DNA of 64,000 bases, from positions 41,579 through 105,578 of the forward strand of contig JAKSZP010017391.1 of assembly GCA_022478985.1 (NCBI GenBank), written 5' to 3'. A program made the translations under genes and the position numbers. The stretch is from Massospora cicadina (lineage: Eukaryota > Entomophthoromycota > Entomophthoromycetes > Entomophthorales > Entomophthoraceae). Shown here piece by piece: positions 6,159 through 59,144 of the stretch. Within the stretch, counting starts at the first letter, position 1; each line of letters starts with the position of its first letter. The notes under the pieces were generated by a model. It saw only the letters and a list, made by a program, of their open reading frames with translations, was not told where the DNA came from and made no database searches.

Positions 6159-6784
6159 GGACTTTAATTGATCAGCTGGCTTCTATACTATGGCCATGTT
6201 CATCATAAGTTGGGGATGTAATTCTTACAAACTATTAAAAACCATAAATTTGGTGACTAGGTCTAAGGCACAAATGGCATGAGGCTGCTGTTTTGAGATA
6301 GTAACAATTTTATAATCAACCAATTACGTTACATATCCACATTCTCACGGTGAGAAACTCTTGTTTTGTATTTTAAAGTCTTGAAAAACCATCTAGTACT
6401 AAAAAAAAAGTCTTGAGAACTTCTAAACTCAAATGTAAGTTTCTTTTTAACTTTGGCCCTAAATATGGTGAGGTCAAACAATGCCCCAAAGCTTCTTGAG
6501 CTTCTATGCTCATACATCCCTGAATATAGTGAGCCTTCTGCCTATTACTGCTAAATCCATAGTGGTCTTTTAGATCTGAAGTATTAAGTCATATTAACTT
6601 CACTAGGAGTGAACTTAGTTTTAACTTATAGTCTATAGTTTGGGTCATCCTAAAGTGCTTTAATTTACTAAACAGGTTAAGTATTTGTATTGAGGTGCCA
6701 TTATTGACTTTGTGCTCTAATAAACTGGGTGAATGTCAATAAGTTAATTGATGCTGTACAACATGCTATTTTATCTGAGCTTAC
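6159..6784. other. Spacer between copies B and C
   Basis: No gene is recognised. The stretch contains one micro-insertion at 6385-6406, listed separately. Confidence 0.5.
6375..6416 (+). mobile_element. Micro-insertion 1, about 22 bp, with TSD
   Basis: AAAGTCTTGA occurs at 6375-6384 and again at 6407-6416. Between the two copies lies AAAACCATCTAGTACT plus A residues. The insert is the last few bases of the CTAGTACTAAAA tail with a short poly-A. This is what an extremely 5'-truncated target-primed reverse transcription event leaves. Confidence 0.75.
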
Positions 6785-6801
6785 AATAATCCAGTTGGCC
6801 A

Positions 6802-8712
6802 GGATCTTTCTCTCCCTTCAATACCCAAATCAAAGCCAAATTCAGATTTTAAAAAAATACAAAAAACAACCACTTGATCAAGCCAAAATTTACCAATGTT
6901 GATGCAATTTACGCCTGCTACCCTAACTTGGGGTGGTGGTGCACCGCCATCTGGCATCTTTCAGCCACCACTGAAGCGCTGGGCTGGCTCTGCTAGCCCT
7001 CCTAATGCTACCAGGCGTTATGTCCCCCCTTGGGACATGGCCCACCACCTCGCAAGCTCTCAGGCGGTGCTCTAGAGCCCTTTGGTGCTCCCATGGAGTA
7101 ATTTGTGTTTCAGCCTCTGGGTCAAATATGGAAATATTTTCCCATATGCAAGTGCAACCATCATTGAGATGGCCATGGTAGATTTCAAACCTGCCAGCTT
7201 TATTGACTTCCACCCCTTTAAGGGGTACTTTGACCTCAGCTTCAACTTGGAAGCTGATGCAGTGGCAGCAGCCAAGCTGCAATTGATTTATAACAAAAAT
7301 TCCGCTCCCCACCATTTGCACCCAGCTCCCAGATGAGACCACTTTGGTGGTCCAGTTCACTGGGTTGCCCTCCTACCTTTCCCCTAAACGCCTCCACAAT
7401 GAGCTCAAGGAGGGTTTGGCCATTTATGGCGTAAACCCCATGTTGTAGTTTGTGGTTCCCAATGGGGCAGATCTGTTGGCAAGACCTTGCACCTTTGAAA
7501 TGATCTGCCCATTTCATCGCAACTCTCACCTTGAAATTCCCCCCACACACCATGATCAGATCCGCCCCTGATCACCCATTATGGGCACGTGTCAAAAATG
7601 GCTGCACCATTTGTCCCTTGTGCATTGAGCTTGACCACTCAAAGCACAAGTGCCCCATGGCTGCCACTTCTGCCACATCCACCGCTCAGGGCTCAGGGTG
7701 CCACCTCAGCAGCTGCCTTGCCCCAATTTTTGAATGGGGCTCAATCCTCCCACCCCCAACGTTGGGGAATTCTGGCACTGCTTCCAAAGCGGCAGCCAAT
7801 CAAAATTCAGGCAGATTTAAATTTTTTGAAAATTTGACCAGATTATCCTGAGTTGATGGCTGAACCAGTTATAGCTGAGATGCCATGGTTGAAAACACGT
7901 GGCTAATCAGCTCTAGCCACAGCCCCAATTCCTGTGGCTGGCCCAGTGCTGGCCAAATCCAATCCATTTGAGGCTCTCAAATGGATTGAGGAGTATGGAT
8001 GGCTGTGCCACGTGAAACCAGATTTTGCTTTAGAGGAGTTCTTTGTTATCCCTCCTGAATTTACATTCCCACCATTTTTGTCCAAAAAACGGGTTTCCTG
8101 TTTATAAAAATATTAACACAATGGCAGTTGCAGCTGCAGCTGCCCTGGTCAACACCATCATCCACCAGCAACTCCATGGGGCAATGGAGCCCCTTATTGA
8201 GGGTATTCCTATCCCCAATTTTACTCATGATTTTGAGGAAGATGTGAAGTACAAAATTGAGGAGCTTGCTTTTAGTGCAAGCCATTCTTGTATCGATGCA
8301 GCAAAAAATTCTCTTTTCAACCCCAATTATCCCAAAACCCACCGGCACATCAAGTCATTTACTTGTGTGCCAGCTCTCATCATTTTTACTGAGCATCAAC
8401 TTGCTCAATACATTGAGGCGATGGACACCGCTGGCCTCATTAACAAAGAAAACCCCCAACTATACCTCCTTATGCCCCACGTTGCTGATGCTCCCACTCC
8501 AATGCTGTCCGCCATGGTCCGCCAGCTAAAGCGTGCGCCAGACAAAAGTTTTCCTCAAAGCCCCCTCGCCATCTGATATGGCTTCCTAGGCTGATAACCT
8601 AGGGGCTATATTAGGATTTTTTAATTTATGATAAATCCCTTTGTTTGGCCCATTTGTAATTAAAGATGCATGGCAGCTCCCCCTTTTGGGTTGGGCACCA
8701 CTAGTACTAAAA
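6802..8712 (+). mobile_element. ORF1-only LINE derivative, copy C
   Basis: This is a 1.9-kb element flanked by an exact 17-bp duplication, AATAATCCAGTTGGCCA (6785-6801 and 8713-8729). It has a decayed ORF1, a 3' UTR and the tail GGGCACCACTAGTACTAAAA. Both ends are defined by the duplication, so the absence of ORF2 is a property of the element and not truncation by the window or by later insertions. Copies A and C share this tail type, and copy B has the other. Confidence 0.8.
6902..8576 (+). pseudogene. ORF1 (gag-like) of copy C with CCHC knuckle
   Basis: The ATG at 6902 starts MQFTPATLTWGGGAPPSG, and the frame runs to 7336 with one TAG near 7073. An RRM-like part follows (FIDFHPFKGYFDLSFNLEAD). 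The frame then changes. The open segment 7531-7851 carries a complete zinc knuckle, CX2CX4HX4C (CPLCIELDHSKHKC, 7612-7653), in the same relative place as the knuckle of the LINE ORF1 at 54470-54511. A third segment, 8043-8576 (177 aa), is an Ala-rich, probably helical C-terminal domain without a recognised fold. It is also found in copies A and B. RNA binding is inferred from the knuckle. Confidence 0.7.
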
Positions 8713-8801
8713 AATAATCCAGTTGGCCATTGTGGTATTCAAACTTGTAGTTAATCATATTTAAACTCTGGATAGTATAATTGTTCTTTATCTCCATAAT
8801 A

Positions 8802-8876
8802 TAGACTCTATCTTTTTTTTAGTACTAGGTGGTCCCAACCCAAGGGGGGGATTCATCGATGTTTAGACTCTATCTT
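8802..8876 (-). mobile_element. Micro-insertion 2, 49 bp, with TSD
   Basis: TAGACTCTATCTT occurs at 8802-8814 and 8864-8876. The insert between them reads, on the minus strand, ACATCGATGAATCCCCCCCT, then TGGGTTGGGACCACCTAGTA, then CT and poly-A. It has nearly the same 5' limit as micro-insertion 6 at 41105-41154. Confidence 0.8.
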
Positions 8877-10522
8877 TCTATTGGTTCACCGCCATTTTCC
8901 ATAAGTTGTGCTGCAGCAGATGGTTTACTTCTTGACAGCTCATTTAGCAACTAAATCACTTATCACTTCAATTCATCAATTTCTCGTGTCAAACTTTCCA
9001 GATTTTGATTATCTGGGACTTCATCTCCATAATACACTTACATGATATCTTCACTAATAATTCATAATTTCATAATGGCGCCCCCTTTAGTGAGCGCCAA
9101 TTATCACAATCCTAACCCTCTCGCTCATCTGATGATAATGCCATAGTGTGGGACAGAGGCAACAAGCTTTTTATTTGTCTGTATGGTGCACCTTCAGGAA
9201 ATCTGGAAGCATTCTTTTAATTAGCATAGTACCTTTACTCAAAATTAAGCGTGTTTTATAGTTTAAACCTTGTAATGGCTTTGACAATGACTTCTTATAA
9301 GCACACTAGGATCCTATTATTTCTACTTGATAATTAGTCCAAGTCCTGAACCTCTTAAAGTAATTTTTCCACAATTTTATCAACTGTTATTAACTTTAAA
9401 ATAAGATAAACTGTTAACCAATAGCAGATTCTGTGAGATAAAAAGCATGTTTACTGAAAAACTAAAAGTGAGATATACAGCAAATTTAGGAAGGTCAGGG
9501 TTCAAAGAAGACATAAATTTTCTTGATAAGTCTCACCCTTGTTATAGTATTCCATTTCAGTGCTTTTATCTTAATTTTTAGAATCTGAGGATACCAAATC
9601 CCAGATTTTATTTGGTTTTTTGGTTTAGATCTCAATTTTAACTATAGAGTTTAAAATTGAAATCTTGGTGTTTTTGTTATTACTGTATTTTACATGACTC
9701 TAGTGGTACTTGTGGCTCTTTGGATGCTGCTGATTGCTTCAGTTTAATTAATTACTACCCAATATGGTAATATTCTATCTTATGAAGACTATATTTAATT
9801 GAGACTCATTATATACTTAGTATTGAATTATGATTATGATTTAATTAAATTTTTATTAGCTTTAATTGGCTGTAAAAACTGATTTTGGCTATTATCTGAA
9901 GTTATCAAATTATTTCTGTCATCAGTGGCTATTAAGGGTTATTTATTTTATGTAGCTACTAAATTATTCAGCCATTATCATAGTTATATGTTGTTCTCAG
10001 CCAATATCATTGACTTAAAAATTATTTTTGCCATCAGTGGCTATAAAGGGCTTATAGTGTTTATGCAGTTACCAAATTTATCAGTCATCTTGTGGCTATA
10101 AATTGATCTCAGCAACTTTGGTGACTATCAGATTCCCTCAAAGGTTGGTACTTTATAAAAATTTATTATTATTGCTTGGGTTTTTTTTAAGGGTGAGAAA
10201 TTAACCTCAATGTTAAGCCTCACTCAGAAAATGTTTTTAGAAGTTTTATCAGCTATTTTTTAACAACTTTTATATATCAGAAACTTTATAGCTTCTCTAT
10301 AACTTACTCATGCTTTTATACTAGTGGACTCCATACCCTTAGTGTTTGGACTCCTTTTACTTTTGGTCCTTTAAAAACAGCATATTGTTGCTTCCCCTCC
10401 AAACACTAGTCATCTACTAATCCTTAGTGGCACTTCTAAATCTTTTCTGATTCTTTTGTATTATATATGTTTCTCATATTCTAAATTTACTACATTTATT
10501 ATGCTTTACTAAGTGCCATAGA
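8877..10522. other. AT-rich spacer with small repeats
   Basis: No gene is seen. Two minor structures occur. One is a short inverted repeat near 9072-9102 (TGGCGC ... GCGCCA), CG-rich against a CG-poor background. The other is a tandem duplication of about 115-120 bp at 9908-10130, listed separately. Confidence 0.5.
9908..10130. repeat. Two-copy tandem repeat, unit about 115-120 bp
   Basis: CATCAGTGGCTATTAAGGG (near 9920) recurs as CATCAGTGGCTATAAAGGG (near 10033). Both are followed by similar AT-rich sequence containing a GTAGCTACTAAAT/GCAGTTACCAAAT match and CTCAGCCAATAT/CTCAGCAACTTT. The units are diverged. Confidence 0.5.
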
Positions 10523-11731: not shown

Positions 11732-11733
11732 TG

Positions 11734-11750
11734 TGGTGCTCACTACAGAG
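11734..11750 (+). promoter_or_regulatory. Primer-binding site of element 3
   Basis: TGGTGCTCACTACAGAG lies 2 nt after the LTR. It begins with TGG, the complement of a tRNA 3' CCA. The first 15 bases are identical to the site of element 1 on the minus strand and differ at one position from those of elements 4 and 5. Confidence 0.6.
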
Positions 11751-11851
11751 GTGGCATCATCAGGCCCTAGTGGGGATCATTAGAGTTCTCATGAGCAGTT
11801 CAACAATGAAGCAGATATGGAAGCATATCACAGAGAGGATTCTCTGAGATT

Positions 11852-12854: not shown

Positions 12855-13942
12855 TGTTAATTATAAGCACTAGATACTCTGAAATTTGAGTACCAAACAT
12901 AATTTTCTGGCGTGTATCTCACTTTGGCTCTCCAGTTAACTGCATAAGTTCTTAGCAACCCCGTTGATTTAATTGTTGATATTAAATAATGAAGGTAGTT
13001 AAAAACATGAAGACTATTACTCACTTGAGCTCACTCAAAAACCAGGGTGAGTGTTGAGTCCAACACTAAACAGGTGCTTGACCTTTCACAATTAAAGGTA
13101 TCTCTGGAATAAATAAGGAACTTCTCCCACTGTCCTTTCTCTCTTATAACAGAGTCTGTGGAGATATTGATAGCCAATATACTACAACCAAATGATATCT
13201 AATCTTTAAAATATTATCTCAATAACTAACTATGCAACTAAAGCATAAAAGTCTTAAACTATAAAAATAATTACGCTATTTTTAATCTTAGTTTATTTAC
13301 TGTGAGGTCAGGAAATTTATAGGTGATACAGCAACCAACTCTTCTGTTGGCGCCTCACTAAGAATCAGCAGCTGTTGCCAGTGGATTAGCCCTCTGAGAA
13401 CGCACCCTTGAGGACCATCCTCATTTGCCTAGTTGTCTTGCACCGCCAACTAGAGTTGCACCCTATATATGGTTGATTTAAGAATGTGCCCCATAATCTT
13501 CAATCAGCCTCAGCGGTGTATCCTCTTTAGGCTATCAATATGCTAGTTATGGAACTTTACCCATCAACTGCAGACTGAAAAACCTAAGGCAATAGACTGT
13601 GAGTTACTTTCAGAAGGGTGTCAAGGCTTCAGCAAATAAAATAGATTCTCAAGTTGATTGGTGACAAACCTCAGTTTAGCTACTATGATTAAATTACAAA
13701 TTAGTTAATTAAAAATCCAACAATAAAGTAAATACATTTGTTGGCAATTTTCCTCAATGAAACATGACCAATATGGTGGATCAACAATCAGAGGATAAGT
13801 AAAAATTCAGAATAATTTGCCAAGCGATAGGTATTATCAAAAAATGATAATTCCCACATTCACTAATGATATAATCCCCATGTGGGCAAAACAGCTATAT
13901 GTAATCTAATTGGCTGGATAATATGAAAAGCAAAACCCAACA
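12855..13942 (-). repeat. 3' LTR of element 2
   Basis: On the minus strand it starts TGTTGGGTTTTG (13942) and ends near TAATTAACA (12855). It matches 27280-27618 plus 30388-31143, which shows where the foldback element entered the other LTR. The uninterrupted length is about 1.09 kb. Confidence 0.75.
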
Positions 13943-13954
13943 TATTACCCCCGC

Positions 13955-23614: not shown

Positions 23615-25400
23615 CATTAATGAGGCATCTGGCTAAATAATATTCTTAAATAAAAATTTGGGTACTTCAGCACAAGGCTACCCATTAAATATCTTTGGAG
23701 CTTGTTGAACAATTTCTGGGCTTCATCTTTTCACATAGATCCTTTTTTCAGATCCTTTAATAGATGAGATAATGATTTGGTGGTTCTAGCAAAATCCTCA
23801 ATGAATTGGTGATAGTATCTGACAATCCCAGGAAAAACTTGAATATCTTGAATGCTTTTTGGTACTGACATCTGCTTGATTGCTTCTATCTTCATTGGTT
23901 GCAGCTGTTATCCGGTGGAGTTTGTTACAAACCCTCAGTATTAAGGCTTTTTTATAAAAAAATGGCACATTCTCAGCTTAATTTTGAGATTGCCGTTTCC
24001 AGGTGCTCAGATACTTCTTTCAAATGCTCTAAGTGGTCAGTAAAGGTCCTTCTAAAGACATTGATATTGTTAAATATACCAGCACACAGGATATATTCAA
24101 ATCAATGATTGTTGAATACATGGCCCTCTGGAATGTGACTGGCGCATTGAATAATCCTTGGGCCTTCTAATTGGCTGATGCAATTCATGTGCAGTGATTA
24201 TCACAAATTTTTCTTGATCTTCCTTTGGCAAACCAATTTGCCAATAGCTTTAAATCAAACTCATAGCCAAAAAATTACTTTGCTTCACCTAGGCGATCAA
24301 GTGCATTGTCAATCCTTGGATGTGGATAAGAGTCCTTTTTAGTAATTTTATTTATTCAGCAATAATTGATCACTACTCAATTTGATCTACCTTCTTTTTC
24401 ACAATTAGGATTGGACTTGCCCATTGATTTGACAATGGAATGAATAGCTCATGCTCTATTTCTTTGCTGATTTCTTTGCTGATTACACCCTTAGCAGCTT
24501 TAGATCAGCGGACTAGTTGAATCCTTATTGGAAGATATTATCCATTGTCAACCTTATGGATTACATTTTTTGCACATCTGAGGTCATAGTCATCTTGGGT
24601 GAATATCACCCACTATTTTTCAAACAGTCAGGCACCTCCACTTGCTGTCATTCAAATATACCAGCCAATTGCTCCTTATCAACCAATACATTGACATTTT
24701 TAGCAACATCTGCTTATTTTTTTTTTTTTAGTACTAGATGGTGCAACATCTGCTTATAATACCATTTTGGGTAACGTTCCAAATCATGAAATTCATTAAG
24801 TTCCACCATCAAAATCAAATGCAGATATGCAATGACTTTATTTTTTCAACTTTCATTGTTTTTTACCCTGGTTGTCTAGTACTCTTATTTCTCCATGAAT
24901 CAGCATAATAATTTGTGGCACCACCAATGTCTTGATCCTCAATTCTTTCCATGGGCTGAAGATCTCTCCATATAGTTTTTCTGTGAGTTTGAATGTTAAC
25001 CCAATGTTAACTATCTTTTGCGTTCATGGCAGAATAGTGTTCAACATATTCAAACTTAAAGGTATTCCACGATTCTCCATGATTTTTGTCAGCATTTCTC
25101 TCCATTTTTATCCAACTACCTTGTACAAATTTGGTATAATGAAGTCATTGTAAATAATGTTTTAAATTATTCCTATTCATCAGTGGGGCCTCTCCTTTCC
25201 ACTGATACTAAAGGCAGGGTCTGCCCCAATATTGTCAGAGCATTTTCTTTAAAATTACACTTCACACCATACATCCTTTGGAACTCCATTACAATGAGTA
25301 TGTCATGATTTGGATTAGCCAGCACTATGGCAGGAGCTGATACCACCACTGATCTAAACAAAGTAGTAGCTCACTATAGGCTCCACATTATATGGTGATA
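23615..25400 (-). pseudogene. RT and protease region, element 2
   Basis: This is minus-strand pol that continues across element 1 to 16220. Around 24100-24170 RT-like sequence reads QGLFNAPVTFQRAM, followed by a degraded catalytic box in place of YIDD. The connection region near 23800-23860 resembles that of element 1. At 25173-25361 an open stretch (62 aa) with NPNHDILIVMEFQRMYGVK lies at the protease position. No long intact frame remains. Confidence 0.5.
24703..24757 (-). mobile_element. Micro-insertion 3, 25 bp, with TSD
   Basis: An exact 15-bp duplication, GCAACATCTGCTTAT, lies at 24703-24717 and 24743-24757. The insert on the minus strand is ACCATCTAGTACT plus poly-A. It lies inside element 2, so it postdates that element. 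Confidence 0.85.
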
Positions 25401-30200: not shown

Positions 30201-31143
30201 TTTGATATCACCCCATGAGCAATATCTGGGCCCCCAAATGCAGCGGAATTTGACCGTTCCATTGGACGTTAAAGAGGGAGTTTGCATGCCAGTGCAACCC
30301 TGATGCTCAGAAGATCAAGGCTCTCTTCCAATGCAGGCTTGCATATGCCAATGTGGCAAATAGGGCCTTGGGAGCCCATTTGTTACTAAGGATATCCAAT
30401 CCTTAAATTACTATTTCAATAGCTAACTATACAATTAATGCATAAAAATTTAAACTATAAAAGTAATTACGCCATTTTAATCTAGTCTATTTACTATAAA
30501 GTTAGGGAATTTATAGGGGATACAGCAACCAAATCTTCTGTTGGCGCCTCACTAAGAATCAGCAGCTGTTGCCGGTGGATTAGCCCTCTGAGGACGCACC
30601 CATGAGGACCATCCTCATTTTTCTAGTTGTCTTGCACCGCCAACTAGAGTTGCAACCTCTTTATGGTTGATTTAAGAATGTGCCCCATAATCTCAATCAA
30701 CCTCAGCGGTGTATCCTCTTTGGGCTATCAATCTGCTAGTTAAGGGAACTTTACCCATCAACTGCAGACTGCAAAGCCTAGAGCATTAAACTTTGAGTTA
30801 TTTTTTGAAGGGTGTTGAGGCTTCAGCAACTAAAAATAGATTCAAAAGTTGATTGGTGACAAACCTTAATTCACTTACTATGATTAAATTACCAATTAGT
30901 TAATTGGCAATCCAACCATAAAGTAAATACACTTGTTGGTAATCTTCCCCAATGAAACATGACCAATCTGGTGGTTCAACACTCAGCAGATAAGTAAATA
31001 TCTAAAATAATTTGCCAAACAATAGTTATTATTAAAAAAAATAATGACTCCTAAATCTACTAGATGATATAATCCTCTTGTGGGCAAAATAGCTATATGT
31101 AATCTAATTGGCTGGGTAATAGGGTCATAACAAAATCCCAACA
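27280..31143 (-). repeat. 5' LTR of element 2, split by a foldback element
   Basis: The LTR parts are 27280-27624 and 30388-31143, equivalent to 12855-13942. The two parts join at AAGGAT, which is present on both sides of the inserted element (27619-27624 and 30388-30393). Confidence 0.75.
27625..30387. mobile_element. Foldback element with kilobase inverted arms
   Basis: The ends are GTAACAAATGAG... and ...CATTTGTTAC(T), with a 6-bp AAGGAT flank duplication. The arms 27625-28765 and 29244-30387 are inverted copies of each other over about 1.14 kb. The centre (28766-29243) is a third copy of the terminal unit of about 470 bp, in the orientation of the right arm, and it also ends ...GTTTGTTAC. 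I see no transposase. Similar open stretches in two arms (27716-28030 plus; 29939-30262 minus) follow from the duplication and do not resemble a known protein. Transposase superfamily is unknown. Confidence 0.75.
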
Positions 31144-40452: not shown

Positions 40453-40502
40453 AAAAGCAGGTGCGTTTTGGGACCATCTAGTACTAAAAAAGCAGGTGCG
40501 TT
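40453..40502 (+). mobile_element. Micro-insertion 4, about 20 bp, with TSD
   Basis: AAAAGCAGGTGCGTT occurs at 40453-40467 and 40488-40502. Between them is TTGGGACCATCTAGTACTAA. It is the same tail as the other micro-insertions, cut at a different 5' point. Confidence 0.85.
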
Positions 40503-41092: not shown

Positions 41093-41166
41093 ATTGTATA
41101 TCATTTTTTTTAGTACTAGATGGTCCCAACCCAAGGGGGGGATTCATCGATGTTATTGTATATCAT
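41093..41166 (-). mobile_element. Micro-insertion 5, 50 bp, with TSD
   Basis: ATTGTATATCAT occurs at 41093-41104 and 41155-41166. The insert on the minus strand begins AACATCGATGAATCCCCCCC and ends in the CATCTAGTACT tail plus poly-A. It is nearly identical to the insert at 8815-8863, with nearly the same 5' limit. Confidence 0.85.
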
Positions 41167-41381
41167 TATATTGGTTTAATTGAATGACTTATAGTATCAC
41201 CACAAAGGTGATTAAGATATTAGCCTACATCTGTAAGTTGAGATAGATGCTGAAAAGTGCAAAAAAATTATATTGATGTGAATAATTGCTAAAAACAGAT
41301 TGCAGAAAAAACTGTCTTGTAAAAAAAACTAACTCTATATAAGAAATAAGGTCACTAGATTAGCTAAGAACAATTGTATTT

Positions 41382-45689: not shown

Positions 45690-46390
45690 TTAATGACAAG
45701 ATGATTTGGTCTTAGGGATGCCTATAGGTTCTGGCAGGACCACTCCACCTGGAAATCATTTGGGACCATCATGATGGAATCACTGTGGACACCTGGGTGA
45801 AGCCTAAGACTCTGGAACTGATCCGCTTCACTTATAATTGGAAGGGATTAGCCATGCAGGTTGCCAGGTACTGTAAGGAGTGCATTGTCTGCAATCAAAT
45901 GAAGCCAAATTACCAGCCCCTTGCAGGGTTGTTGGTACCAGTTTAAAAGGCTAAAGGGCCTTGGACTTCCTTATTGGTGGATTTCATTGCAGAGCTAGCT
46001 GCATATGAAGGCTACAATGCCATCATGGTAGTTCTGGATCTTAGTTTATAAAGTTAATCCACTTTATTCTCTGAATAACCACAGTAACCATGGCTGATAT
46101 AGCTAGGCTCTTTGTATTGCATGCGTTTTCACTTCATATGGTTCCCCAAGAAATAAATAGTGCTCATGGGCCACAGTTTACTTGGATCTTCTAGGAAAAG
46201 TTGTATAAGACTCTTAAAATTTGCCCTTGCCATTCAACTACCTATCATCCATAATCAGATGGGTAGACTGAATGAGTGAACCAGTGCTTGGAGCAATCCT
46301 GTGGTGTTATACTGCCACAGATCACTTGGATCAGGTCCTTATCTCCCCATGTCTCAATTTGGTTATAACAATACCCAACATATATCAATC
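45690..46390 (+). pseudogene. Integrase core of element 4, one catalytic Asp lost
   Basis: The zinc-binding part reads WKGLAMQVARYCKECIVCNQ. The core begins DFIAELAAYEGYNAIMVVLD, with the first Asp. The second catalytic segment reads NSAHGPQFTW, where the family has SD.GPQF. The Asp codon is GCT (Ala) at 46162-46164. TTYHP.SDG.TE.VNQCLEQ follows with stops in place of Gln and Arg. The protein could not catalyse integration. Confidence 0.7.
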
Positions 46391-46392
46391 GG

Positions 46393-47088
46393 TTGCCCCC
46401 TATCGCCAACTATAGATTCAATCCTGCCTTCAACATGGAGCCCAGTTGTGGATCCAGGGTGGAAGCGGTGGTGGACTTTGCAAAAACTATCAAGAAAGTA
46501 CACCAAGGGGTAAACCCCAATTTGGATTCAGCTATGCAAGCTTACAAGGAGAATGCTGATGATAAGAGACAGGTTGGTCCCACATACAAAAAAGGTTACC
46601 TCATGATGTTGGATGCTAAAAATATCCCAATCAAGCATCCATGCAAAAAACTGAAACCAAAGAGGATAGAGTCATACTACATTGTCAAAAAGGTGGGCTA
46701 TGCCTCATACCAGTTGGATCTCCCTTCCTCATTCTGTATCTTTGCAGTCTTCTATGATGTTAAACTTATAAAGTTTGAGGGTCCCCTACCAGAGACTCCA
46801 GAGTCTTATCTCATTGATGGGGTGCTAGAGTGGGAAGTGGAGGAGATTTTAGCATCCTATCATATAAGAAGAAGACTTGAGTATCTTGTATCCTGGAAGG
46901 GATTTGATGCAGCAGAGGACAGTAGGGTACCAGCGCGTGACTGCACCTATGTCCAAGATCTTATTGAAGTTTTCAATGAGCATTTCCCAGAGGCTGCAGG
47001 ATCTAAGTCCAAGAAATCCATTGCTTCCATAAATTTGTCTCCTTCTCACAAAAATTTTTCCTTGGTGAATGCCCCTGGAGGGAGGTAG
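46393..47088 (+). CDS. Integrase C-terminus with chromodomain, element 4
   Basis: This is the longest undisrupted frame of element 4 (231 aa). It is the C-terminal part of an integrase and was not a separate gene. Residues about 1-110 hold the integrase tail (VGPTYKKGYLMMLDAKNIPI, KLIKFEGPLPE). Residues about 135-195 form a chromodomain: EWEVEEILASYHIRRRLEYL, then VSWKGFDAAEDSRVPARDC. The usual Trp of the SWEPA-like segment is Arg (AGG). Chromodomains guide integration to modified histones in this family. The ATG shown is internal, and the true frame starts upstream in the broken core. Confidence 0.7.
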   Translation: MPPIANYRFNPAFNMEPSCGSRVEAVVDFAKTIKKVHQGVNPNLDSAMQAYKENADDKRQVGPTYKKGYLMMLDAKNIPIKHPCKKLKPKRIESYYIVKKVGYASYQLDLPSSFCIFAVFYDVKLIKFEGPLPETPESYLIDGVLEWEVEEILASYHIRRRLEYLVSWKGFDAAEDSRVPARDCTYVQDLIEVFNEHFPEAAGSKSKKSIASINLSPSHKNFSLVNAPGGR

Positions 47089-50133: not shown

Positions 50134-53100
50134 TCAGAAGAGACAAAACTTAGTACCAGGGGAGGCACCCCAGAGAAGCGATGCTATCTCTTGTTGCCAG
50201 CGGGAACGCCATTTATGGGGAGGGGAGGAAACGTGTGAAGGGGCCATAGCCACAATTGAGCACGTGTGGAGGAAGGGGTCTGATTTGATGAACCAGACTG
50301 GGAACCAGGAAGAGACCAGCTGTTGGCAATGTGGTGGGAGGTATCCAAACATCCACGCTTGAAAGTGGTCCACCAAATGGGACTGGAATCTGTGTACCGC
50401 TTCTGGGAGGGTAGGGGTGGAGCCTGCGATGGCATCTAAGACAATTGTGTGGATGGTCCACATGGCGATTGCAACCACCAAAGCATGAAGGGAGGGCAGA
50501 AGGGGGGAGGCCATTGATAGAGAGAACATATCTCTTGACAGACTGAAGGGATGCGTTTGATCCTGGCCCAGAAGACGTTGAACTTCGCGCCATATCACTT
50601 TAGAGGTAGGGCACTTCTCCAGGCGGTGAAACAGCGTTCCATACTGGCCACACATGACACAGGATGAGTGTAAAGCATTAGAGCGCTCAGCTGTATTATA
50701 CACCCGCCTCAGGCAGCGCCACACATGGGAGCGGACTTGAGGTTGCAACAGAGGATGGTTTACATATGTCCAGATATTTTTTTGGGTATCAATGGAGTAA
50801 GGGATGTCCATCATGTCCAGGTAGTCCACCCTGGATAGGACATGGGGTCAAATGGGGATCACGCCATCATGGATGGGTAGCCCCTGTACCTCTTGTGTGA
50901 ACTGAGGAGAGGGGCGGCCTCTTTGGGTTGTATGTCCACTAATACGAATTCTCCACTCAGCGCTCCACATGGAGAGGAGGATTTGTTTGTAGTGGGTTTT
51001 AGTCCCGTGAGGACCTGTGGCTGATGTATGTGAAGCGAGGTATTTCATCAGGTGGGGTTTGATGGATTGTTGAGGCCCAAGGCGCGGGAGAAGTTGGAGC
51101 GGGCTGCACGGGACCAGTGTTGGGAGGAGTGTAGGGGTGGTGACAGCCACAATCCAGGTACCCAGGATCTTGGTGGCATGGGCTTTGAAGTCAAGCAGGC
51201 CCATGCCACCATGATGTTGAGGGCCAAACATGACCTCTAACTGCACTGGTGGAAGGCGGCCTGACCAAAGCCATCCTTGTAGCAAGGTGTACAAGGATTT
51301 GTAGAAGCTTGGGGAGAAGGGGATGGCATGGGCTCCAAACCAGACTTTGGAGAGGAGCATGGAGTTGGGTAAAACTATCCTGCCAGTAAGGGAAGTAGGG
51401 TGGGCTCTGAGAGAGGCGATTCGCTTCATCACGTTATCCAGAATATGGCACTCCATTACTGCTGACGTGTATCCGCCTGCCTCCATCCACATGCCCAGAT
51501 GGCGTACTGGTCCTATGGTAGGACGTGGCATGAAGGGGAGCACCAGTGGGGCGGTGCGTTTTGAATTAGTAGGACGAGGACGTGGGCGATCAGATGGGCC
51601 AGGTTGGGAACTAATTGTTGGGGTCCAGCAGTTCTGAAACTGACCAAGGAGGATGATTTCAGTTTTGAAAGCGTTTAGTGCTGCGTTGCTTACCTGGGAA
51701 TACTCCTGGATGAGAGCTTCAAGCGCGCGTGCATCTTGATTATTAGATACCCCCACCACACAATCATCTGCAAATGCCATTATCTTAACTGGGGCTTGGC
51801 CTGGCATGTGGACCCCAGTGAGTTGGGCGTTCACATTTTGCAGTAGTGGGTCAAGGCTGAAGTTATATAAGAGTGGTCTGAGGGGGTCCCCTTGTTGCAA
51901 GCCCCTTTGAGGGCAGACTACTTCCGTTAGGAAGCCAGGGCCACGCACTGCCAGAGTTGCCAATTCTGTGAGCAGCATTACCCAGTTGATGAAGCGAGGG
52001 GGTAGGCGGAATGATGGAGGCAGGCCCTGAGGTATTCCCAGCTTACTCTATCATAGGCCTTTGTTGGTCCAAGAATACAAGTGCCCCAGAGGCTGTGGCT
52101 GATATACATTAGCCACAGAGTGCACATTATTTAAATCGACCTTCTGGGGATGAAACCAAATTGTTCTGGGGAGATGGTGGCAGATGCTACAGTCCCTAAA
52201 TGGTTAGCCATGATTTTTGTTAAAATTTTGATGTCTGTGTTTGTTAGAGAGATGGGGCACCAGTTGGCTAAGTCTAGCTTATCCCCTTTTTTAAAGAGTG
52301 TGACAGTGAAGGCCTCATGTTCTCCTGGTAGGAGGCACGTTTCCATCAGGCTTTGGTTAAGTGAGGTGAGCAGCAATGGGGATATATATCTGAAATATTT
52401 TTTGTAGAATTCATATGGAATGCCATCTGGGCCTGGGCATTTTTGGTTTGGTGCACTGCAAATGGCTGTCCATAATTCGTTTGGAGTAATCAAATTCATT
52501 ATTTCTGGGTATCAGAAAATGGAGTGGATGTGGGCTCAGTTGAGAAATTCTGCCACTTTGGCCAGCTGAATTGGGTCAGAGCAGTACAACTTGGAGTAAT
52601 ACTGTTGCATTTTGATTGCCACTTCAGCCGGTGTATCCGCAATGGAATTATCCGATCTTTACACCTGTGTGCAGGCCACACTCTGGAATGGTGCAAAGTT
52701 TTTTTTAAAGAAATGTGCGGTGCACTTGTCACCTTTTGTGATGCGTGTGGCCCTGTACTGAACACAAACCCGATGTTTGTGTTGTCTTTTGAGTGCGTTG
52801 AGGTGGGCAGCTGCCTCCACCCACTTCCATCCCCATGCAGAGCTGTATCCTGTAACTGGGATGTTGGACTCTAAGTGTGCCAATTCTGCCAGAGCGTGTG
52901 AGATAACCGCTGATGTGGCTTGTGAGCATCTGGAGGAGAGATGGCGAGAGTGGCAGATGGTGTCATCTTTGAAAGTTGCTCATGTGAAAATGGGGTCCAC
53001 GCAAAACAGTGTAACAAACTTTTTTGCCATAGTTGCCTCTTCTACCCATGTGGAAAATCCTGGTGACCCGAGCTTGGGGGGGCAGATTTTGTACCAATGT

Positions 53101-53830
53101 GAGGCCTTAGCAGCTGTGACAGGTAGGTGGTAGGTTAGCAAGACCATTTGATGGTCGGAGAATTCCAATTTTGTTGTCTTGAAGTGGGAGATGTGGGGTT
53201 GGAATCTCGCTGGCGTTAGAATAATGTCAATGTGGGTCATGGACCTTAATTGGCCGTTGTGGACGTGGGGCTGTGTCATGTTTTCGAGCAGCAGGGCATG
53301 CTGTGGCAGCGCATCCATTAACCCAAGGGTGGCCTTTAAAACGTGTAGTTCTACGTGACCCTGGGGGCGTGGGGTGAGGAAGGCCACCAGTCCATTGGTG
53401 TGTTTAGCCAACAGTTCATGTCACCGACTATGAAGGAGTCTGGGGGTAGCGGGAGGGATTTGATCAATGAGAAAAATTCCTGATGCTCACATGCACTGTT
53501 TGGGGCATAGATGTTGATGATTGCGTGTGCTACGTCAGCCCACGAGAAGGTGACAACAAGCACTTGGCCATTTAGGAATGTTTCTGAGGATAAAAATTTG
53601 AAAAAATTATTTTTCCAAATTAGCACCCCACAGTGCATTGACCAAAAGGATAGGGATGGGAGGAGCATTGTTTTCCAAGCTTCCTCAGAACCTCATGGAC
53701 AGTGGGACTCCTGGATGGCCAGGATATCCACAGGTATATTGTGTTGTAAAAAACTCAGTTTCCTAGCTTGGGACGGGGAGGCCTTGAGTCCAGCAATATT
53801 CAACATCCCTATGGTGAAGGTTTCCCCCAT
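50134..53830 (-). pseudogene. LINE ORF2: endonuclease, RT, Cys-rich end
   Basis: The ATG at 53830 lies 6 nt after the ORF1 stop. The APE-type endonuclease reads FTIGMLNIAGL, VDILAIQESH (followed by an in-frame TGA), IINIYAPN, FIVGDMNCW and, after a frame change near 53400, LEFSDHQMVLL. RT starts near 52499 with CPGPDGIPYEF, ISLTNTDIKILTKIM and EQFGFIPRRS. After another break comes the segment 51978-50848, with QRGLQQGDPLRPLLYNFSL and the catalytic FADD (51763-51774). The C-terminal part, 50829-50134 (231 aa), has a Cys/His segment CVMCGQYGTLFHRLEKC like the zinc fingers that end many L1-type RTs. Few lesions, so it is relatively young. Confidence 0.8.
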
Positions 53831-53836
53831 CACACC

Positions 53837-55048
53837 TTAGGTGTGAGGGGGTGGGCACCTGGGCCCACCATCCTCTTCTAGATCCCCATGGGCCTTCACA
53901 GCAGTGCAGGTGTTATCAGTAACACTATCGGAGTTTTTGTTAATTTTTGTGGAAAGAGTTGCATTGGCTTTAGCCTTCACTTTTTGTTTTCCCGACGTCG
54001 GACAAATTTTTTGCGGTGCAGGTGAGTTTGGTGCACCGTTGAGTGGGTCAAAAAAATTTTCAGTTGGGATGGGTCCCAAGTCAGTTTCAATCAGAGCTTG
54101 GGTGCAACGATTGGGTGAGATCAAATCTCCCATTGGATCCTCAGATTGAGTGGCCCGCTCAGCATGGGCTTCCCAATCTGATTGGTTGATGGATTCCCAA
54201 GTTGCTTCTACCATGAAGGTCTCCATGTCCTCCTGGCGTTGTGAGTGTGGGATAGCAGTGGTGGCTTTGGCCACTTCCTTGGCCACAGCCCTACAGGCTT
54301 GCTTGGCCTTCTTCCACTCTTGTGGGGAGATAGGCTTTACCAGTAGGTAGCAGCCTTGTGCTCCCCACGGGAAGGCCTCCTTGGTGCTTGCATTTGGTTT
54401 GTAGTGTGCCTCTCCGCTGGCCATGGCTGCCGAGGGGTGCTCTTGGAATGTGATGCCCTCCTTGATGGGGCATGCATGTGCCTTATGGCCAAATGCATCA
54501 CAGTGGGTGCAAATGGGGGGTGCACTGTCCACGGTCACCCGGAATGGGTGGGTGGTATGCCCTGCGATATCAATAAAGGTGGAGTGCAGGATCTGGGTTA
54601 GGTCCTTTGCAATCTCCTCAGTTGGGGTCAGAACTGCAATGGCTTTGCCAGTGCACAGGTGTGGCATCAGTGTGAAGTGTTGCATTTCAAAATATTGTAT
54701 TTCGCCATATATGGTGAGACCATCTTTCAGGTGTTGTTCCAAATTGTCACATTTTACCGTAGTAGGCAAAAAGTCAAACGTGAGGAAAATTTGGTTGGAT
54801 TTTGTCCATCTGGTGCATTTAGTTTTGATGACCCATTGCCCTTCGGGGAGGTTGACCACTATGCGCACCACTGCAGCCTTGTCTGCTGCCATTCTGCTTT
54901 TAAAACCTAGGTCCAGCCAACCGTGTGACATGGAGTGAGGTGCAACGTACACCGCGGTTGGGAAAATTGTGTGTACATCTTCACGAAATTTTTCCCATAA
55001 GGCCGTTTTTTGGATGTCCAGAAACACGCAGACTCCTAATTCCACCAA
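53837..55048 (-). CDS. LINE ORF1, RNA-binding gag-like protein (intact)
   Basis: This open frame of 403 aa is the least damaged gene in the window. By family role it coats the LINE RNA and acts as a chaperone in the ribonucleoprotein. Residues about 1-165 look like an RRM-type domain (GWLDLGFKSRMAADKAAVV; FLTFDFLPTTV). A CX2CX4HX4C knuckle, CTHCDAFGHKAHAC, lies near residues 180-193 (54470-54511). The rest is a charged, Pro/Asn/Ser-rich tail. The stop (53837-53839) and the ORF2 start (53830) are 6 nt apart, so ORF2 is probably reached by reinitiation. The ORF1-only elements at 326-8712 encode relatives with the same order of parts. Confidence 0.8.
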   Translation of the reverse strand: MVELGVCVFLDIQKTALWEKFREDVHTIFPTAVYVAPHSMSHGWLDLGFKSRMAADKAAVVRIVVNLPEGQWVIKTKCTRWTKSNQIFLTFDFLPTTVKCDNLEQHLKDGLTIYGEIQYFEMQHFTLMPHLCTGKAIAVLTPTEEIAKDLTQILHSTFIDIAGHTTHPFRVTVDSAPPICTHCDAFGHKAHACPIKEGITFQEHPSAAMASGEAHYKPNASTKEAFPWGAQGCYLLVKPISPQEWKKAKQACRAVAKEVAKATTAIPHSQRQEDMETFMVEATWESINQSDWEAHAERATQSEDPMGDLISPNRCTQALIETDLGPIPTENFFDPLNGAPNSPAPQKICPTSGKQKVKAKANATLSTKINKNSDSVTDNTCTAVKAHGDLEEDGGPRCPPPHT

Positions 55049-55439
55049 TGAATGTGGCTGGGAGTGTGGTGTGTTAATGTACTGGTTGCATTGTGCTTGC
55101 CATGCGAGTATCTCTAGGTAAATAGTGACTGCCAGTTTTATAGTATTTTTGACAATTCTGCCGGATTCTCTGGGGCATTTTCAAACATTGGAGGCTGCGG
55201 GGCTTCCACCTGCTCCTCTTACCTTGCTTGCCCAACTGCTCCCTGACATGGGCGCAGACTAATCTCCTCTATGAGATTATCAAACTAGATTCTGTCTTGA
55301 ATTGAATAGGTTGCAATAGTGATTGCAATGAGAAAGAAAAGTTTTAATATTTATTTGTTTTTATTCTAATACTTAGGTTGATATCTATTGTTATAAATAA
55401 CTTACCTAAAAATGCAATGATTATTTATGCATTAATATT

Positions 55440-55728: not shown

Positions 55729-55743
55729 TTATGAATTAATATT

Positions 55744-56279
55744 GTTAATAGGTTTAAGTAACCAGGTTCCAACAATAGCTTGTCAAGCTCATCAGTGGAG
55801 CTTAAATAGGGGCAATTTAATTGGTTAAAATTTGTGTTTAAGTTTCTAAATTATAAATTATATACTAAATAGATTTGAATTATCTTTTTCAAATCTTTAA
55901 TATCTCTAAAATTTATTATTAATATTGGAGAATTGGAGAATCAATTTTACCTTGTTTTTTAGAATCTCTGAATACCTCTGATTGGTATAGTTCACCAGTT
56001 TGGGGGTGCAAAAGCTATGTATATTAGCTAATTTGCCCTACTAACAAAATCTAAAAATCCAATTGGCATCAGTTTAGAATTTGAATCACTGCTGATTTGA
56101 ATTACTGAATCACACCTTAATAAATTTTAAATAAAATTGACTTGAAATCCAAAATTATCAAACAATTTAGACTTAGCGCCACTATTAGCAAATCAATCTT
56201 TGACATCATAAAACAAAATAAAAAGCCATAAAACCCCTCAAAACAGCACCCTGAGCTTAAAAAGGGTGACCCCAAGAAA
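55744..56279. other. AT-rich spacer, nothing recognised
   Basis: This is about 0.5 kb of AT-rich sequence without coding or repeat signals that I can name. Confidence 0.45.
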
Positions 56280-57930
56280 ACGTGCATGAATCTCATGACC
56301 TAGCTGCGGATGTTGAAGATGAGCTTGCACTGGCACAGCTAAAGCTGTGCCTCCACTATGCTCTGAGCCCCATTTACCTTTGAAGAAACTATCATTTGTC
56401 CCATCTGGACTAACAGCTTCACTGTTGCCCTTGTGCCCTGTGAGCTAAATCTATTACTATTAAATATAACTCAAAGAATAGCTCTAAGGTTCAATATACT
56501 AAAATATTATAGTATAATACCATAAAAACTATCATCTATGCCACTTGGACTAACAGCTTTGCTGTTGCCCTCAGCCTGTGAACTAACTTATTATTAGAAA
56601 AATATATCTCTAAGAATTGCTCTTGGGTTCAAATTACTAAAATAGTATAGTTTGATACCATAAATGCTATCATTTGTGCCACTCATATGATATATTACTT
56701 TAAAAACTATTATTTGTTCCACTTGGACTTAAAGCTTTGCTGTTGCCCTCATGACCTGTGAATAACTTATTAATATTTTTAAAAATATCTGATCAATGTG
56801 CTAAAGTAAAACACATATCATATTAAGGTATAGTACCATAAAAACTATCAGTTGTGGCACTCTGACTAACAGTTTTGCTATTGCCCATGTAGCCAGAGAA
56901 ATAGTAGCATAACTCCAAATAATAAAGTTTATACTTTAATTAAGCTTACAAACTCAAATAAACTGAGCATAAGCAACATGATCAAGTGCCTTAATACAAA
57001 TAATATATTTAGTCAGGGAAGCTGATTTAATTGAAGTATAGTAGAGATAAATTAAATATGTTTCAGTATAAGTCACCTATTAAAAGAGCAAACACTTTAA
57101 AAATTCATATTAAACTAAAAGCAATATAAATAGCATAATATTAGATAAATCATTAATCATGGTTAGTTTATTTAGAATATTAAAAAATCTGAAAAAAACT
57201 CAATATGATAAAAATTTTATTACCAAGCTATCACTTCTTGCTAGTAACCAATTATTTTAAAGTTAAATTTTAGTAGATAGAAAAAATAATTAACCATGCC
57301 TTGATGATATTAGTAAAAATATATGATAACAATTAAAATATAATGAAATCAAAAATAAAATTACTAACTTATAGTAGATCTATTAGAAAGATAAAAGCTT
57401 ACCTTGAAATTAATAAATATAGTTAAAACAGATAGTTTAAGCTGAGATCAAAATCAATACCTTTACTAATAAATATTACCAAGCAGGAAACAAACCTTCC
57501 CTTAAAAAGATGTTCATAACTATTTCAGATGATTACAGATGGGCAAATCAAAAACATAACCAACAAAACTAATTTATCACCACCAAAGGCTTACAGTGAA
57601 AAGATATTAATCATTTCAGATTTCTAATGTTCATACTAAAATCAATCATCTAGTAAAGCATCAAAATTAAATGCTATAGTTTATAAAATAAGTAAACTAT
57701 CAAAAAATATTCTAAAAAGATATCAATCACTACATCAGATTGTGGATGTTATACTGGAAGCAAACATCTAGTAAAGTAAAACATCAGTATCTATAAGTAA
57801 TGAAAAATGTAAAATTATCAAAAAGTCTCAAAACAAGATGAAATTGATTTACATATCAGTCCTAAAATATTTATTCTTACCTTGGTGATGAGACCATAAT
57901 TCTGCAATTTAATTAAGGAAGTTATTTATA
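56280..57930. repeat. AT-rich repeat block X2, sister of X1
   Basis: It is a direct repeat of about 48430-50050. It opens with GATGAGCTTGCACTGGCAC and GCTGTGCCTCCACTATGCTC, which recur inverted at 59640-59735. A degenerate sub-repeat of about 140-180 bp with a small hairpin occurs four times near 56412-56882. The remainder follows X1, ending near CTTACCTTGGTGATGAG (57876). Confidence 0.65.
56380..56900. repeat. Hairpin-bearing sub-repeats, four copies
   Basis: The core reads AACTATCATTTGTGCCACTT, then GGACTAACAGCTTTGCTGTT, then GCCCT. AACAGC-TTT-GCTGTT is a perfect stem-loop. Copies centre at 56412-56426, 56552-56566, 56730-56744 and 56868-56882. A fifth lies in X1 (48560-48574) and a sixth, inverted, at 59657-59671. 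Changes on one side of the stem are not always compensated. Confidence 0.6.
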
Positions 57931-58379
57931 AAATTAATTAGTTATTACTATGTAAACTTTATACTTTATTATCATGATGAGTTAAGTTAAAAGTTGTCTG
58001 GCCTAGCTATAAATATGATTGCTATTTATATATTAATAGCATTGATAAAAGCAACAAATAGTCAATCTATAGTATGATAGTAATTTATACTTCATATTCA
58101 TCAGTGAAGCTAGAATTTGGTATGATTTTATTGGTTGAAAAATGTGGGTAAGTTTTACAAATATAAAACTACAGATTGATTCAAAATATCTGGTATCAAA
58201 TCATCTATATAACTGATAAGTATTTAGAATCATAGTACTTATTTTACCAAATTTTTGGGATACTCCAATTATCCCAGAAGGGTCTATATTAGAGTGGGGG
58301 TACATATTATTAAATTAAACCTAAAACTGTTTCTATCAGATTAGACTTATTAGATAATGATAGATCATATAATAGTAAA
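57931..58379. other. AT-rich spacer, nothing recognised
   Basis: Sequence between block X2 and the next array, with no gene or repeat boundary seen. Confidence 0.4.
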
Positions 58380-59060
58380 ATTTATCCAATTGGCTACATA
58401 AATATGGGCTAAAACTCTTCATATTAGTCTAAACTAAAGTTATTTTTAGTAAGATTAGATTAATTTGATAAAAATTACCTATTATATTAATAGATTTTTC
58501 CAAAAGTTATGTGCAATAAAATTTATTACTCTAGGTATTCAATCTAAACTAAACTATTTTAATCAGGCTAGATCATTTAAATAATGGTAAGCATCATTTA
58601 TACTAATATAATTTGTCCGATTGGCTTCTTATGATATAGGTTAAAACCTTAAACTTTAGTTTTAGATCAAAACTAAAGCCATCTTAATCAGATTAGATGA
58701 TTGATTTTAAATCATCATTTTTATAAATAATTTCCCAATTAACTGCATTTGATTAGTTTAAAACTTTAAATATACATTAAAACTATTCTAATCAGATCAG
58801 ATCAATTGATTATGTAAATCATACTTATAAGTAAAATTTATCCAATTGGCTGTATTTATATTTTTTATAAAAAAGTTAGATCAAAGTTTACCATTTTTAA
58901 TCAGATTAAATTAGTTAGGTTAAGTTAAATCATCAAACATATATAATTTATCCAATTGACTGCATTTGATATATTCTAAAGCTTAAAATTTAGATCAAAA
59001 CTTACCATTCTATCTAGTACTAAAAAAAACTTACCATTCTAATCAAATTAGATCAATTAC
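58380..59060. repeat. Degenerate tandem array, unit about 110-120 bp
   Basis: About six units are marked by ATTTATCCAATTGGCTGCAT at the start and ATCAGATTAGATCAATTGAT near the middle. Landmarks lie near 58381, 58613, 58730, 58848 and 58950. The last unit is split by micro-insertion 6. Confidence 0.6.
58997..59040 (+). mobile_element. Micro-insertion 6, 14 bp, with TSD
   Basis: The 15-bp AAAACTTACCATTCT occurs exactly at 58997-59011 and 59026-59040. Only ATCTAGTACTAAAA lies between. It is the shortest insert of the set. Confidence 0.8.
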
Positions 59061-59090
59061 AAAACTCTAAATCTATATCTATATCTACTT

Positions 59091-59144
59091 AATAAAACAC
59101 ATTCACTATCTAGTACTAATAAAAAAAAATAAAACACATTCACT
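59091..59144 (+). mobile_element. Micro-insertion 7, 20 bp, with TSD
   Basis: The 17-bp AATAAAACACATTCACT occurs at 59091-59107 and 59128-59144, with ATCTAGTACTAATAAAAAAA between. It lies under 100 bp from micro-insertion 6. Confidence 0.85.

What the first reader, a model, noticed from the sequence alone, without database searches (positions are those of the whole stretch)
6375..59144. Seven micro-insertions of about 14-50 bp, each with its own target-site duplication
Seven separate sites (6375-6416, 8802-8876, 24703-24757, 40453-40502, 41093-41166, 58997-59040, 59091-59144) show the same structure. A 10-17 bp duplication surrounds a scrap that always ends CTAGTACT plus A residues, in either orientation. 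Five have scattered 5' ends (14 to 25 bp long). The two 49-50 bp copies share nearly the same start (ACATCGATGAATCCCCC). This is what target-primed reverse transcription would leave if it aborted almost at once. The inserts are far shorter than usual LINE or SINE truncations and below the detection limit of standard repeat annotation. Seven in 64 kb implies a very large number genome-wide. The two equal 49-50 bp copies raise the option of a complete ultra-short element.
Basis: partly seen in the sequence, partly recalled or inferred. Interest (0 to 1): 0.88.

Follow-up and report, generated by a model that had tools for sequence, protein, structure and literature searches.

The report
Tiny aborted LINE insertions in Massospora
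A jumping gene in a giant fungal genome has left what looks like tens of thousands of 10-54 base scars, because its copying enzyme usually stops almost at once; some of the scars have a precisely defined start and may be copies of a leftover RNA stub.

Summary
In detail: all seven sites carry exact 10-17 bp direct repeats around 13-49 bp inserts that end CTAGTACT-A(n). The window lies in a 1.47 Gb genome that matches Massospora cicadina MCPNR19. There CTAGTACTAAAA occurs 40,235 times, against 534 for the reversed control. Of 107 distinct sites examined, 84 are TSD-flanked micro-insertions; exact TSDs of 12 bp or more occur at 68 of 107, against 0 of 2,123 mismatched pairs. Five inserts have clear paralogous empty sites. 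The parent is an L1-type LINE (endonuclease, RT) whose 3' end is predicted to fold into a hairpin just upstream of UAGUACUAAAA. Five-prime ends are not random: of the 84, 61 fall in the linker or 3' arm of the hairpin, 2 in the loop or 5' arm, and 21 in a class near its 5' base. In a separate set of 40 that class is nearly nucleotide-precise: 34 of 39 with a TSD are compatible with a start at ACATCG. Best reading: abortive target-primed reverse transcription gives the tiny class, and a defined template boundary gives the 40-54 bp class. What sets that boundary is unresolved.

The parts
6375..6416 (+). Micro-insertion 1: TSD AAAGTCTTGA 6375-6384 and 6407-6416, insert 6385-6406 (22 bp, with extra A bases at its 5' end)
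8802..8877 (-). Micro-insertion 2 (hairpin-end class): TSD 14 bp, insert 8816-8863 (48 bp, starts AACATCGATG on the minus strand)
24703..24757 (-). Micro-insertion 3: TSD 15 bp, insert 24718-24742 (25 bp)
40453..40502 (+). Micro-insertion 4: TSD 15 bp, insert 40468-40487 (20 bp)
41093..41167 (-). Micro-insertion 5 (hairpin-end class): TSD 13 bp, insert 41106-41154 (49 bp, starts AACATCGATG on the minus strand)
58997..59041 (+). Micro-insertion 6: TSD 16 bp, insert 59013-59025 (13 bp)
59091..59144 (+). Micro-insertion 7: TSD 17 bp, insert 59108-59127 (20 bp; tail AATAAAAAAA, so not counted by the CTAGTACTAAAA pattern)
6785..8729 (+). Old long relative ('half-LINE'): TSD AATAATCCAGTTGGCCA at 6785-6801 and 8713-8729 around a 1.9 kb element with a CCHC-like knuckle seen by eye in ORF 7504-7848 and a 3' end GGGTTGGGCACCACTAGTACTAAAA; no Pfam domain found in the two ORFs tested (7504-7848, 8034-8573)
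300..2866 (+). Second, more degraded copy of the half-LINE; degraded flanking repeat 300-329 / 2837-2866 (83%)

Best explanation
The micro-insertions are products of target-primed reverse transcription by an L1-type LINE of Massospora cicadina. The LINE endonuclease nicks A-rich DNA and the RT primes at the 3' end of the LINE RNA, which reads hairpin, then UAGUACUAAAA. Most insertions stop while the RT is still in the linker or the 3' arm of that hairpin (0-16 nt before CUAGUACU), yet the second strand is still cut and joined, which leaves a 10-33 bp scar inside a full-length TSD. Copies that pass the 3' arm rarely stop in the loop or 5' arm. About two thirds of those that reach CAUCGAUG then end close to one nucleotide, at ACAUCG, which is 5 nt 5' of the stem and the last A of AAUAAA. 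I read this second end as a defined boundary of the template: an RNA stub whose 5' end is fixed by the hairpin or its bound RT (as 5'-3' decay stops at a structured RNA), or a block at the AAUAAA signal. Shown: structure, TSDs, 3' identity with the LINE, the distribution of ends, and paralogous empty sites. Inferred: the hairpin as the cause, the abortive step, and the nature of the boundary.
For: 40,235 CTAGTACTAAAA places against 534 for the reversed control. Of 107 distinct contexts, 84 have a TSD (score 9 or more, up to two mismatches) and a short insert; 59 of the 84 are perfect and most are 15-18 bp. Mismatched null at exact 12 bp or more: 0 of 2,123, against 68 of 107 observed; no null was run for the looser criterion. 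Of the 84, 63 have 20 nt or fewer before CTAGTACT and 21 have 28-35; by region 61 lie in the linker or 3' arm, 2 in the loop or 5' arm, 21 at 28-36; P about 6e-13 for 2 of 63 under even spread over 28 positions. CATCGATGAATCCCCC occurs 6,725 times but AATAAACATCGATGAATCCCCC only 2,207 times. Of 40 fetched places lacking AATAAA, 39 have TSDs; 34 of these 39 are compatible with a start at ACATCG and 5 begin at AACATCG. Parent LINE: PF03372 and PF00078 (6e-34) above cut-off, zf-RVT just below; best PDB matches include human LINE-1 ORF2p; compared with L011, six other copies are 90-98% alike over their last 410-520 bp, and L021 99% over 332 bp. Hairpin predicted; same geometry with different pairs in the old family, 7 of 8 pairs in 5 of 7 copies. 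Empty paralogous sites, e.g. L036 against six other loci at 90-91%. GGGACCATCTAGTACTAAAA: 19,101 of 40,235.
Against: The predicted hairpin is no more stable than shuffled sequence (z -0.5 to -0.9 for the young family, +0.5 for the old), and minimum-energy folds of some copies (L089 and several old ones) differ from it. A stem-breaking variant (CATCAATG) raises the long fraction only from 32.8% (2,207 of 6,725) to 36.9% (231 of 626), p = 0.041; its stem-neutral control was half answered (811 places; the companion count never came). In the fetched samples the outer stem is changed in 3 of 13 long and 2 of 23 hairpin-end copies by my reading, not significant. Some ends do fall in the loop or C run: L037, L138 with filler bases, and perhaps L033 and L042, for which no TSD was called. 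No RNA data exist here, and only one genome, assembled with R9 nanopore reads, was available. The main sample is the first 100 places in contig order (five contigs), not random.
Confidence: 0.85

Rival explanations
1. The 40-54 bp class is copied from a distinct short RNA: a 3' stub of LINE RNA left by 5'-3' exonuclease decay that stops 5 nt before the hairpin (or its bound RT), or by endonuclease cleavage. In effect it is an ultra-short retroelement with a defined 5' end, mobilised in trans.
For: 5' end nearly nucleotide-precise: 34 of 39 compatible with ACATCG, 5 at AACATCG. The start lies 5 nt from the predicted stem, about the distance that I recall for exonuclease stops at resistant RNAs (recalled, not from a call). 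Extra 1-3 nt at some 5' junctions (7 of 39) would fit run-off at an RNA end.
Against: No RNA evidence. The stem-broken variant still yields 395 of 626 copies without AATAAA, though many of these may have mutated after insertion. The tiny class has extra or variant 5' bases at a similar rate (17 of 63), so these do not single out run-off.
Confidence: 0.4
2. The 40-54 bp class is a strong stop: a protein bound at AAUAAA (cleavage and polyadenylation factors) blocks the RT on full-length LINE RNA.
For: The stop falls on the last A of AATAAA. AATAAA or ATTAAA lies at a similar place in both the young and the old family.
Against: Requires the factor to stay bound in the target-priming complex. No variant of AATAAA was tested.
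Confidence: 0.3
3. The tiny inserts are later deletions of longer LINE insertions.
For: L072 and L073 are paralogous copies with inserts of different length at the same target place, which a deletion could explain.
Against: 63 of 84 inserts are tiny with the first TSD copy whole and joined directly, or through a few extra bases, to the insert, and 59 of 84 TSDs are perfect. Repeated deletion to the TSD edge is implausible.
Confidence: 0.03
4. A DNA transposon, introner-like element or replication slippage made the inserts.
For: Short inserts flanked by direct repeats.
Against: Fixed 3' end with A tail, variable 5' end, variable TSD length, identity with the 3' end of an L1-type LINE; by eye, no terminal inverted repeats. 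In 262 kb only 3 other repeat pairs met the same criteria, and these look like local tandem repeats.
Confidence: 0.02

Closest known systems
5'-truncated L1-type LINE insertions (target-primed reverse transcription)
   Same: Fixed 3' end with A tail, TSD of about 15-18 bp, A-rich target, endonuclease plus RT parent, 5' truncation; a TSD peak of 14-16 bp is reported for human full-length L1 (PMC2912911, passages read)
   Different: In the sample most copies are 10-54 bp; ends cluster inside or just upstream of a 3' hairpin; one class has a nearly nucleotide-precise 5' end
Ylli LINE of the yeast Yarrowia lipolytica (PMC5014426, passages read)
   Same: Fungal LINE with many short truncated copies; that paper counts 104 fragments of 30 bp to 1 kb in one strain
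   Different: The paper says that no target-site duplications have been identified for Ylli, and the numbers are hundreds of times smaller
SINEs mobilised by a LINE that shares their 3' tail (recalled)
   Same: A short sequence shares the 3' end of an autonomous LINE
   Different: No separate 5' region; the insert is LINE 3' end only, about 43 nt plus A tail
HAL1-type half-LINEs of mammals (recalled)
   Same: The older relatives at 330-2836 and 6802-8712 carry an ORF1-like knuckle and end in the same tail; no RT was recognised
   Different: Fungal and unrelated in sequence; RT absence judged only on the ORFs tested

Membership tests
5'-truncated LINE insertion made by target-primed reverse transcription | Constant 3' end shared with a full LINE, followed by an A run | tested here: met
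5'-truncated LINE insertion made by target-primed reverse transcription | Target-site duplications beyond chance | tested here: met
   68 of 107 against 0 of 2,123 at exact 12 bp or more
5'-truncated LINE insertion made by target-primed reverse transcription | Parent encodes APE-type endonuclease and RT | tested here: met
   PF03372 3.2e-9, PF00078 6e-34 in L021; LINE-1 ORF2p among the best PDB matches of the L019 RT
5'-truncated LINE insertion made by target-primed reverse transcription | A-rich endonuclease target | tested here: met
   TSD starts A 81, A 75, A or G 69, A 62 of 84; the first position is favoured by how TSD edges are called
5'-truncated LINE insertion made by target-primed reverse transcription | Empty sites | tested here: met
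   Paralogous empty sites at 85-92% for five inserts (L036, L044, L002, L025, L047); orthologous strains not available; of the six window sites asked only one had a paralog in the sample, a weak one (70%)
SINE | Own 5' module with RNA polymerase III promoter | tested here: not met
   Hairpin-end inserts match only LINE 3' end; no Rfam match at gathering threshold in the window; no dedicated promoter scan was run
SINE or complete ultra-short element | Defined 5' end shared by independent copies | tested here: met
   34 of 39 compatible with ACATCG; holds for the 40-54 bp class only
Exonuclease-resistant RNA stub | RNA with 5' end at ACAUCG in cells | not testable with these tools
Exonuclease-resistant RNA stub | Depends on the hairpin | tested here: inconclusive
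   Long fraction 231 of 626 with broken stem against 2,207 of 6,725, p = 0.041; control count missing

The most novel reading that the evidence does not exclude
The 40-54 bp class is a retroelement of about 43 nt plus A tail with a defined 5' end: a decay-resistant 3' stub of LINE RNA, kept whole by its hairpin or bound RT, that is integrated thousands of times in one genome. Alongside it, the tiny class is a genome-wide record of abortive initiation by a LINE RT, showing that second-strand cutting and joining do not need a long cDNA.
Probability: 0.4. Interest if true: 0.86.

Novelty: new variant of a known kind. Interest (0 to 1): 0.72.

Why it matters
Abortive products of LINE target-primed reverse transcription are not expected to leave a record. 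Here roughly thirty thousand (extrapolated) seem to be preserved with full TSDs, so initiation, pausing, template boundaries and end joining of a LINE RT can be read from sequence at nucleotide resolution. It suggests that second-strand cleavage and repair proceed even when only some 10-25 nt have been copied, and that TE surveys of such genomes may miss a large class of insertions.

Tried and rejected
Considered a 5S rRNA or other ncRNA origin from a recalled resemblance: no Rfam match at gathering threshold in the window, and a permissive scan of 8600-8900 gave only three weak miRNA models far below their thresholds. Considered the LINE at 50137-55180 (minus) as parent: the roughly 800 bp downstream of its last ORF read lack the tail. 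Considered microhomology-driven joining: 17 of 46 exactly templated tiny inserts have 1 nt or more of microhomology (37%), against 24% in a mismatched null, so at most a minor driver. Considered internal deletion of long copies (see rivals). MAFFT aligned old and young hairpins out of structural register, so pairs were counted in a fixed geometry by script; there two of seven old copies reach only 5 of 8 pairs, and single old copies are marginal or not significant against shuffles (P 0.036 to 0.96); of the eight young copies seven have P of 0.013 or less and one 0.10. A resemblance of TACTAA to a branch-point motif was not pursued.

Literature: searches (open PMC papers only) listed no title or abstract start that describes such micro-insertions; a claim of absence rests on these alone. 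One search returned no paper.

Not done: counts for GGGTTGGGACCATCTAGTACTAAAA, for the old-family tail GGGCACCACTAGTACTAAAA, and for the AATAAA companion of CATTGATG, because the genome search was busy; so whether the old family also makes micro-insertions is untested. Of 107 sites, 8 had no TSD called (one, L087, looks like a chance match), 8 were long young LINE copies and 7 were old half-LINE copies. Identical 120-bp contexts were counted once. Of the 2 inserts counted as ending in the loop or 5' arm, one (L013, 19 nt) owes its length to bases that do not match the LINE.
Full report
1. The observation. All seven sites are present as described: exact repeats of 10-17 bp flank inserts of 22, 48, 25, 20, 49, 13 and 20 bp that end CTAGTACT plus A residues, four on the plus and three on the minus strand. 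TAGTACTA occurs at ten places in the window: the seven sites, the 3' ends of two long elements, and one unrelated place.

2. Source. The only protein found for the ORF at 8034-8573, and the best of three found for the window's RT ORF, are from Massospora cicadina. The window lies in contig C15028 of a 1,469,884,898-bp assembly of 16,968 contigs. Its contig C1, 1,107,499 bp, matches the longest scaffold (1,107 kb) of M. cicadina MCPNR19 in PMC9584336 (text part 1 of 3 read), which reports 1.488 Gb and 92% transposable elements. PMC11105155 (passages read) gives M. cicadina 6.3% L1 LINEs and calls it unique in this among the fungi compared.

3. Genome-wide test. CTAGTACTAAAA occurs 40,235 times, against 534 for the reversed pattern. 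I fetched the first 100 listed places; with the window's own they give 107 distinct contexts. Exact TSDs of 12 bp or more within 60 bp: 68 of 107, against 0 of 2,123 mismatched pairings. With up to two mismatches, 84 of 107 have a TSD and a short insert; no null was run for this looser rule. The other 23 are 8 long young LINE copies, 7 old half-LINE copies and 8 with no TSD called, one of which (L087) looks like a chance match. TSDs are mostly 15-18 bp, 59 of 84 are perfect, and they tend to start A-A-R-A. If this sample is representative, about 31,000 micro-insertions exist (84 of 107 times 40,235); this is a rough figure, since the sample is the first places of five contigs. Another 20 sites, chosen for GGGACCAT before the tail, gave 12 tiny, 2 hairpin-end, 1 odd (L138) and 5 long copies.

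4. Empty sites. Among fetched loci, five inserts have clear uninterrupted paralogs with a single copy of the TSD: L036 in six other loci at 90-91%, one of them window 50296-50813; L044 in L002/L003, which are overlapping stretches of one place (92%); L002 in L043 (88%); L025 in L026 (87%); L047 in L020 (85%). Further pairings at lower identity are listed in that call. Six of the window's seven sites were asked; one had a paralog in this sample, at 70%. Strain-level empty sites could not be tested.

5. The parent. L019 and L021 carry a LINE with an ORF1-like frame that has a CCHC-like motif seen by eye (no Pfam match), an APE endonuclease (PF03372, 3.2e-9), an RT (PF00078, 6e-34) and a zf-RVT match below its cut-off. 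The L019 RT's best PDB matches include human LINE-1 ORF2p. Its 3' end reads, with variation between copies, AATAAACATCGATGAATCCCCCCCTTGGGTTGGGACCATCTAGTACTAAAA. Compared with L011, six other copies are 98.5, 97.3, 96.2, 95.1, 93.9 and 89.6% alike over 411-518 bp, and L021 99.1% over 332 bp. The two long elements in the window (about 330-2836 and 6802-8712) are older relatives of a different family: 62% alike to each other, with a CCHC-like motif in ORF 7504-7848, no Pfam match in the ORFs tested, and a tail with CACCACTAGTACTAAAA.

6. The ends. The LINE tail is predicted to fold as GAUG-aa-UCCC...GGGA-c-CAUC just before UAGUACUA. The energy is not exceptional (z -0.9), but the old family keeps the geometry with different pairs in its outer stem: 7 of 8 pairs in 5 of 7 copies, 5 of 8 in the other two; minimum-energy folds of several old copies and of L089 differ. 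Of the 84 micro-insertions, 61 have their 5' end 0-15 nt before CTAGTACT (linker and 3' arm), 2 at 16-27 (loop, C run, 5' arm) and 21 at 28-36. Even spread over positions 0-27 would give 2 or fewer of 63 in the gap with P about 6e-13. Possible further ends in the C run are L138 and L033 and L042, which have no called TSD.

7. The sharp class. CATCGATGAATCCCCC occurs 6,725 times and AATAAACATCGATGAATCCCCC 2,207 times, so two thirds of such copies do not continue through AATAAA. Among the first 100 places listed, 65 lack AATAAA; I fetched the 40 of them that lie on contigs C8-C38. Of these 39 have a TSD. In 34 of the 39 the junction is compatible with a start exactly at ACATCG: 21 with one A between TSD and CATCG (in at least four of these the TSD also ends in A, so AACATCG is possible too), 7 ambiguous because the TSD overlaps, 6 with one to three extra bases; 5 start at AACATCG. 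This looks like a template boundary, not gradual loss of processivity. Sequence variants in this class (TTGGG, TCAGG, TCGGG; C-run length) are also found in long LINE copies, which fits many LINE source RNAs rather than one separate master; C-run length may also reflect nanopore error.

8. Mechanism (inferred). Tiny class: the RT starts at the A tail and mostly stops while opening the 3' arm; once past it the 5' arm is free and few stops occur. Sharp class: either a stub RNA with a fixed 5' end (5'-3' decay or cleavage stopped by the hairpin or its bound RT), or a block at AAUAAA. A stem-breaking variant gives 231 of 626 long copies, against 2,207 of 6,725 for the intact stem (36.9% and 32.8%, p 0.041). 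The effect is small, many such variants may be later mutations, and the control (CATTGATG, 811 places) lacks its companion count. I leave this undecided.

9. Novelty. Five-prime-truncated LINE insertions are well known, and the yeast LINE Ylli has many short fragments (104 of 30 bp to 1 kb, no TSDs identified; PMC5014426 passages). I found no report of a LINE family dominated by 10-54 bp insertions, nor of a class with a nucleotide-precise internal 5' end (searches; listings seen, plus passages of four papers and one text part). A scan of 262 kb (window and L009-L028) found no other family making such inserts (21 with CTAGTACT, 3 others that look like tandem repeats; the 21 is inflated because L009-L028 were chosen for the tail).

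Noticed in passing
330-2836 and 6802-8712 (+), also L010, L011 1-846, L041, L057, L063: An older ORF1-bearing 'half-LINE' family with no recognised RT in the ORFs tested that shares the LINE 3' tail and keeps a similar hairpin geometry with different base pairs.
   Followed up: partly
8034-8573 (+): A database protein named translation initiation factor 3 subunit b of M. cicadina matches this element (81% identity over 35% of the query), so that gene model seems to include transposon sequence.
   Followed up: no
50137-55180 (-): A second, degenerate LINE (ORF1 with CCHC, RT, zf-RVT) of another family; its ORF2 holds one of the empty-site paralogs of the insert in L036.
   Followed up: partly
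27623-30386 (+): Large inverted-repeat structure, longest arms 85-91% complementary, next to a stretch at 30388-31143 that is 86% like 13191-13942.
   Followed up: no
56386-59650 (+): Array of diverged tandem repeats in which two of the seven micro-insertions (58997, 59091) sit 50 bp apart.
   Followed up: no
L072 about 395 and L073 about 390 (minus strand): Paralogous copies carry inserts of different length at the same target place: two independent hits or an internal deletion.
   Followed up: no
46369-47085 (+): ORF with Tf2-1-like SH3 and chromo domains, as at the integrase end of Ty3-type elements.
   Followed up: no
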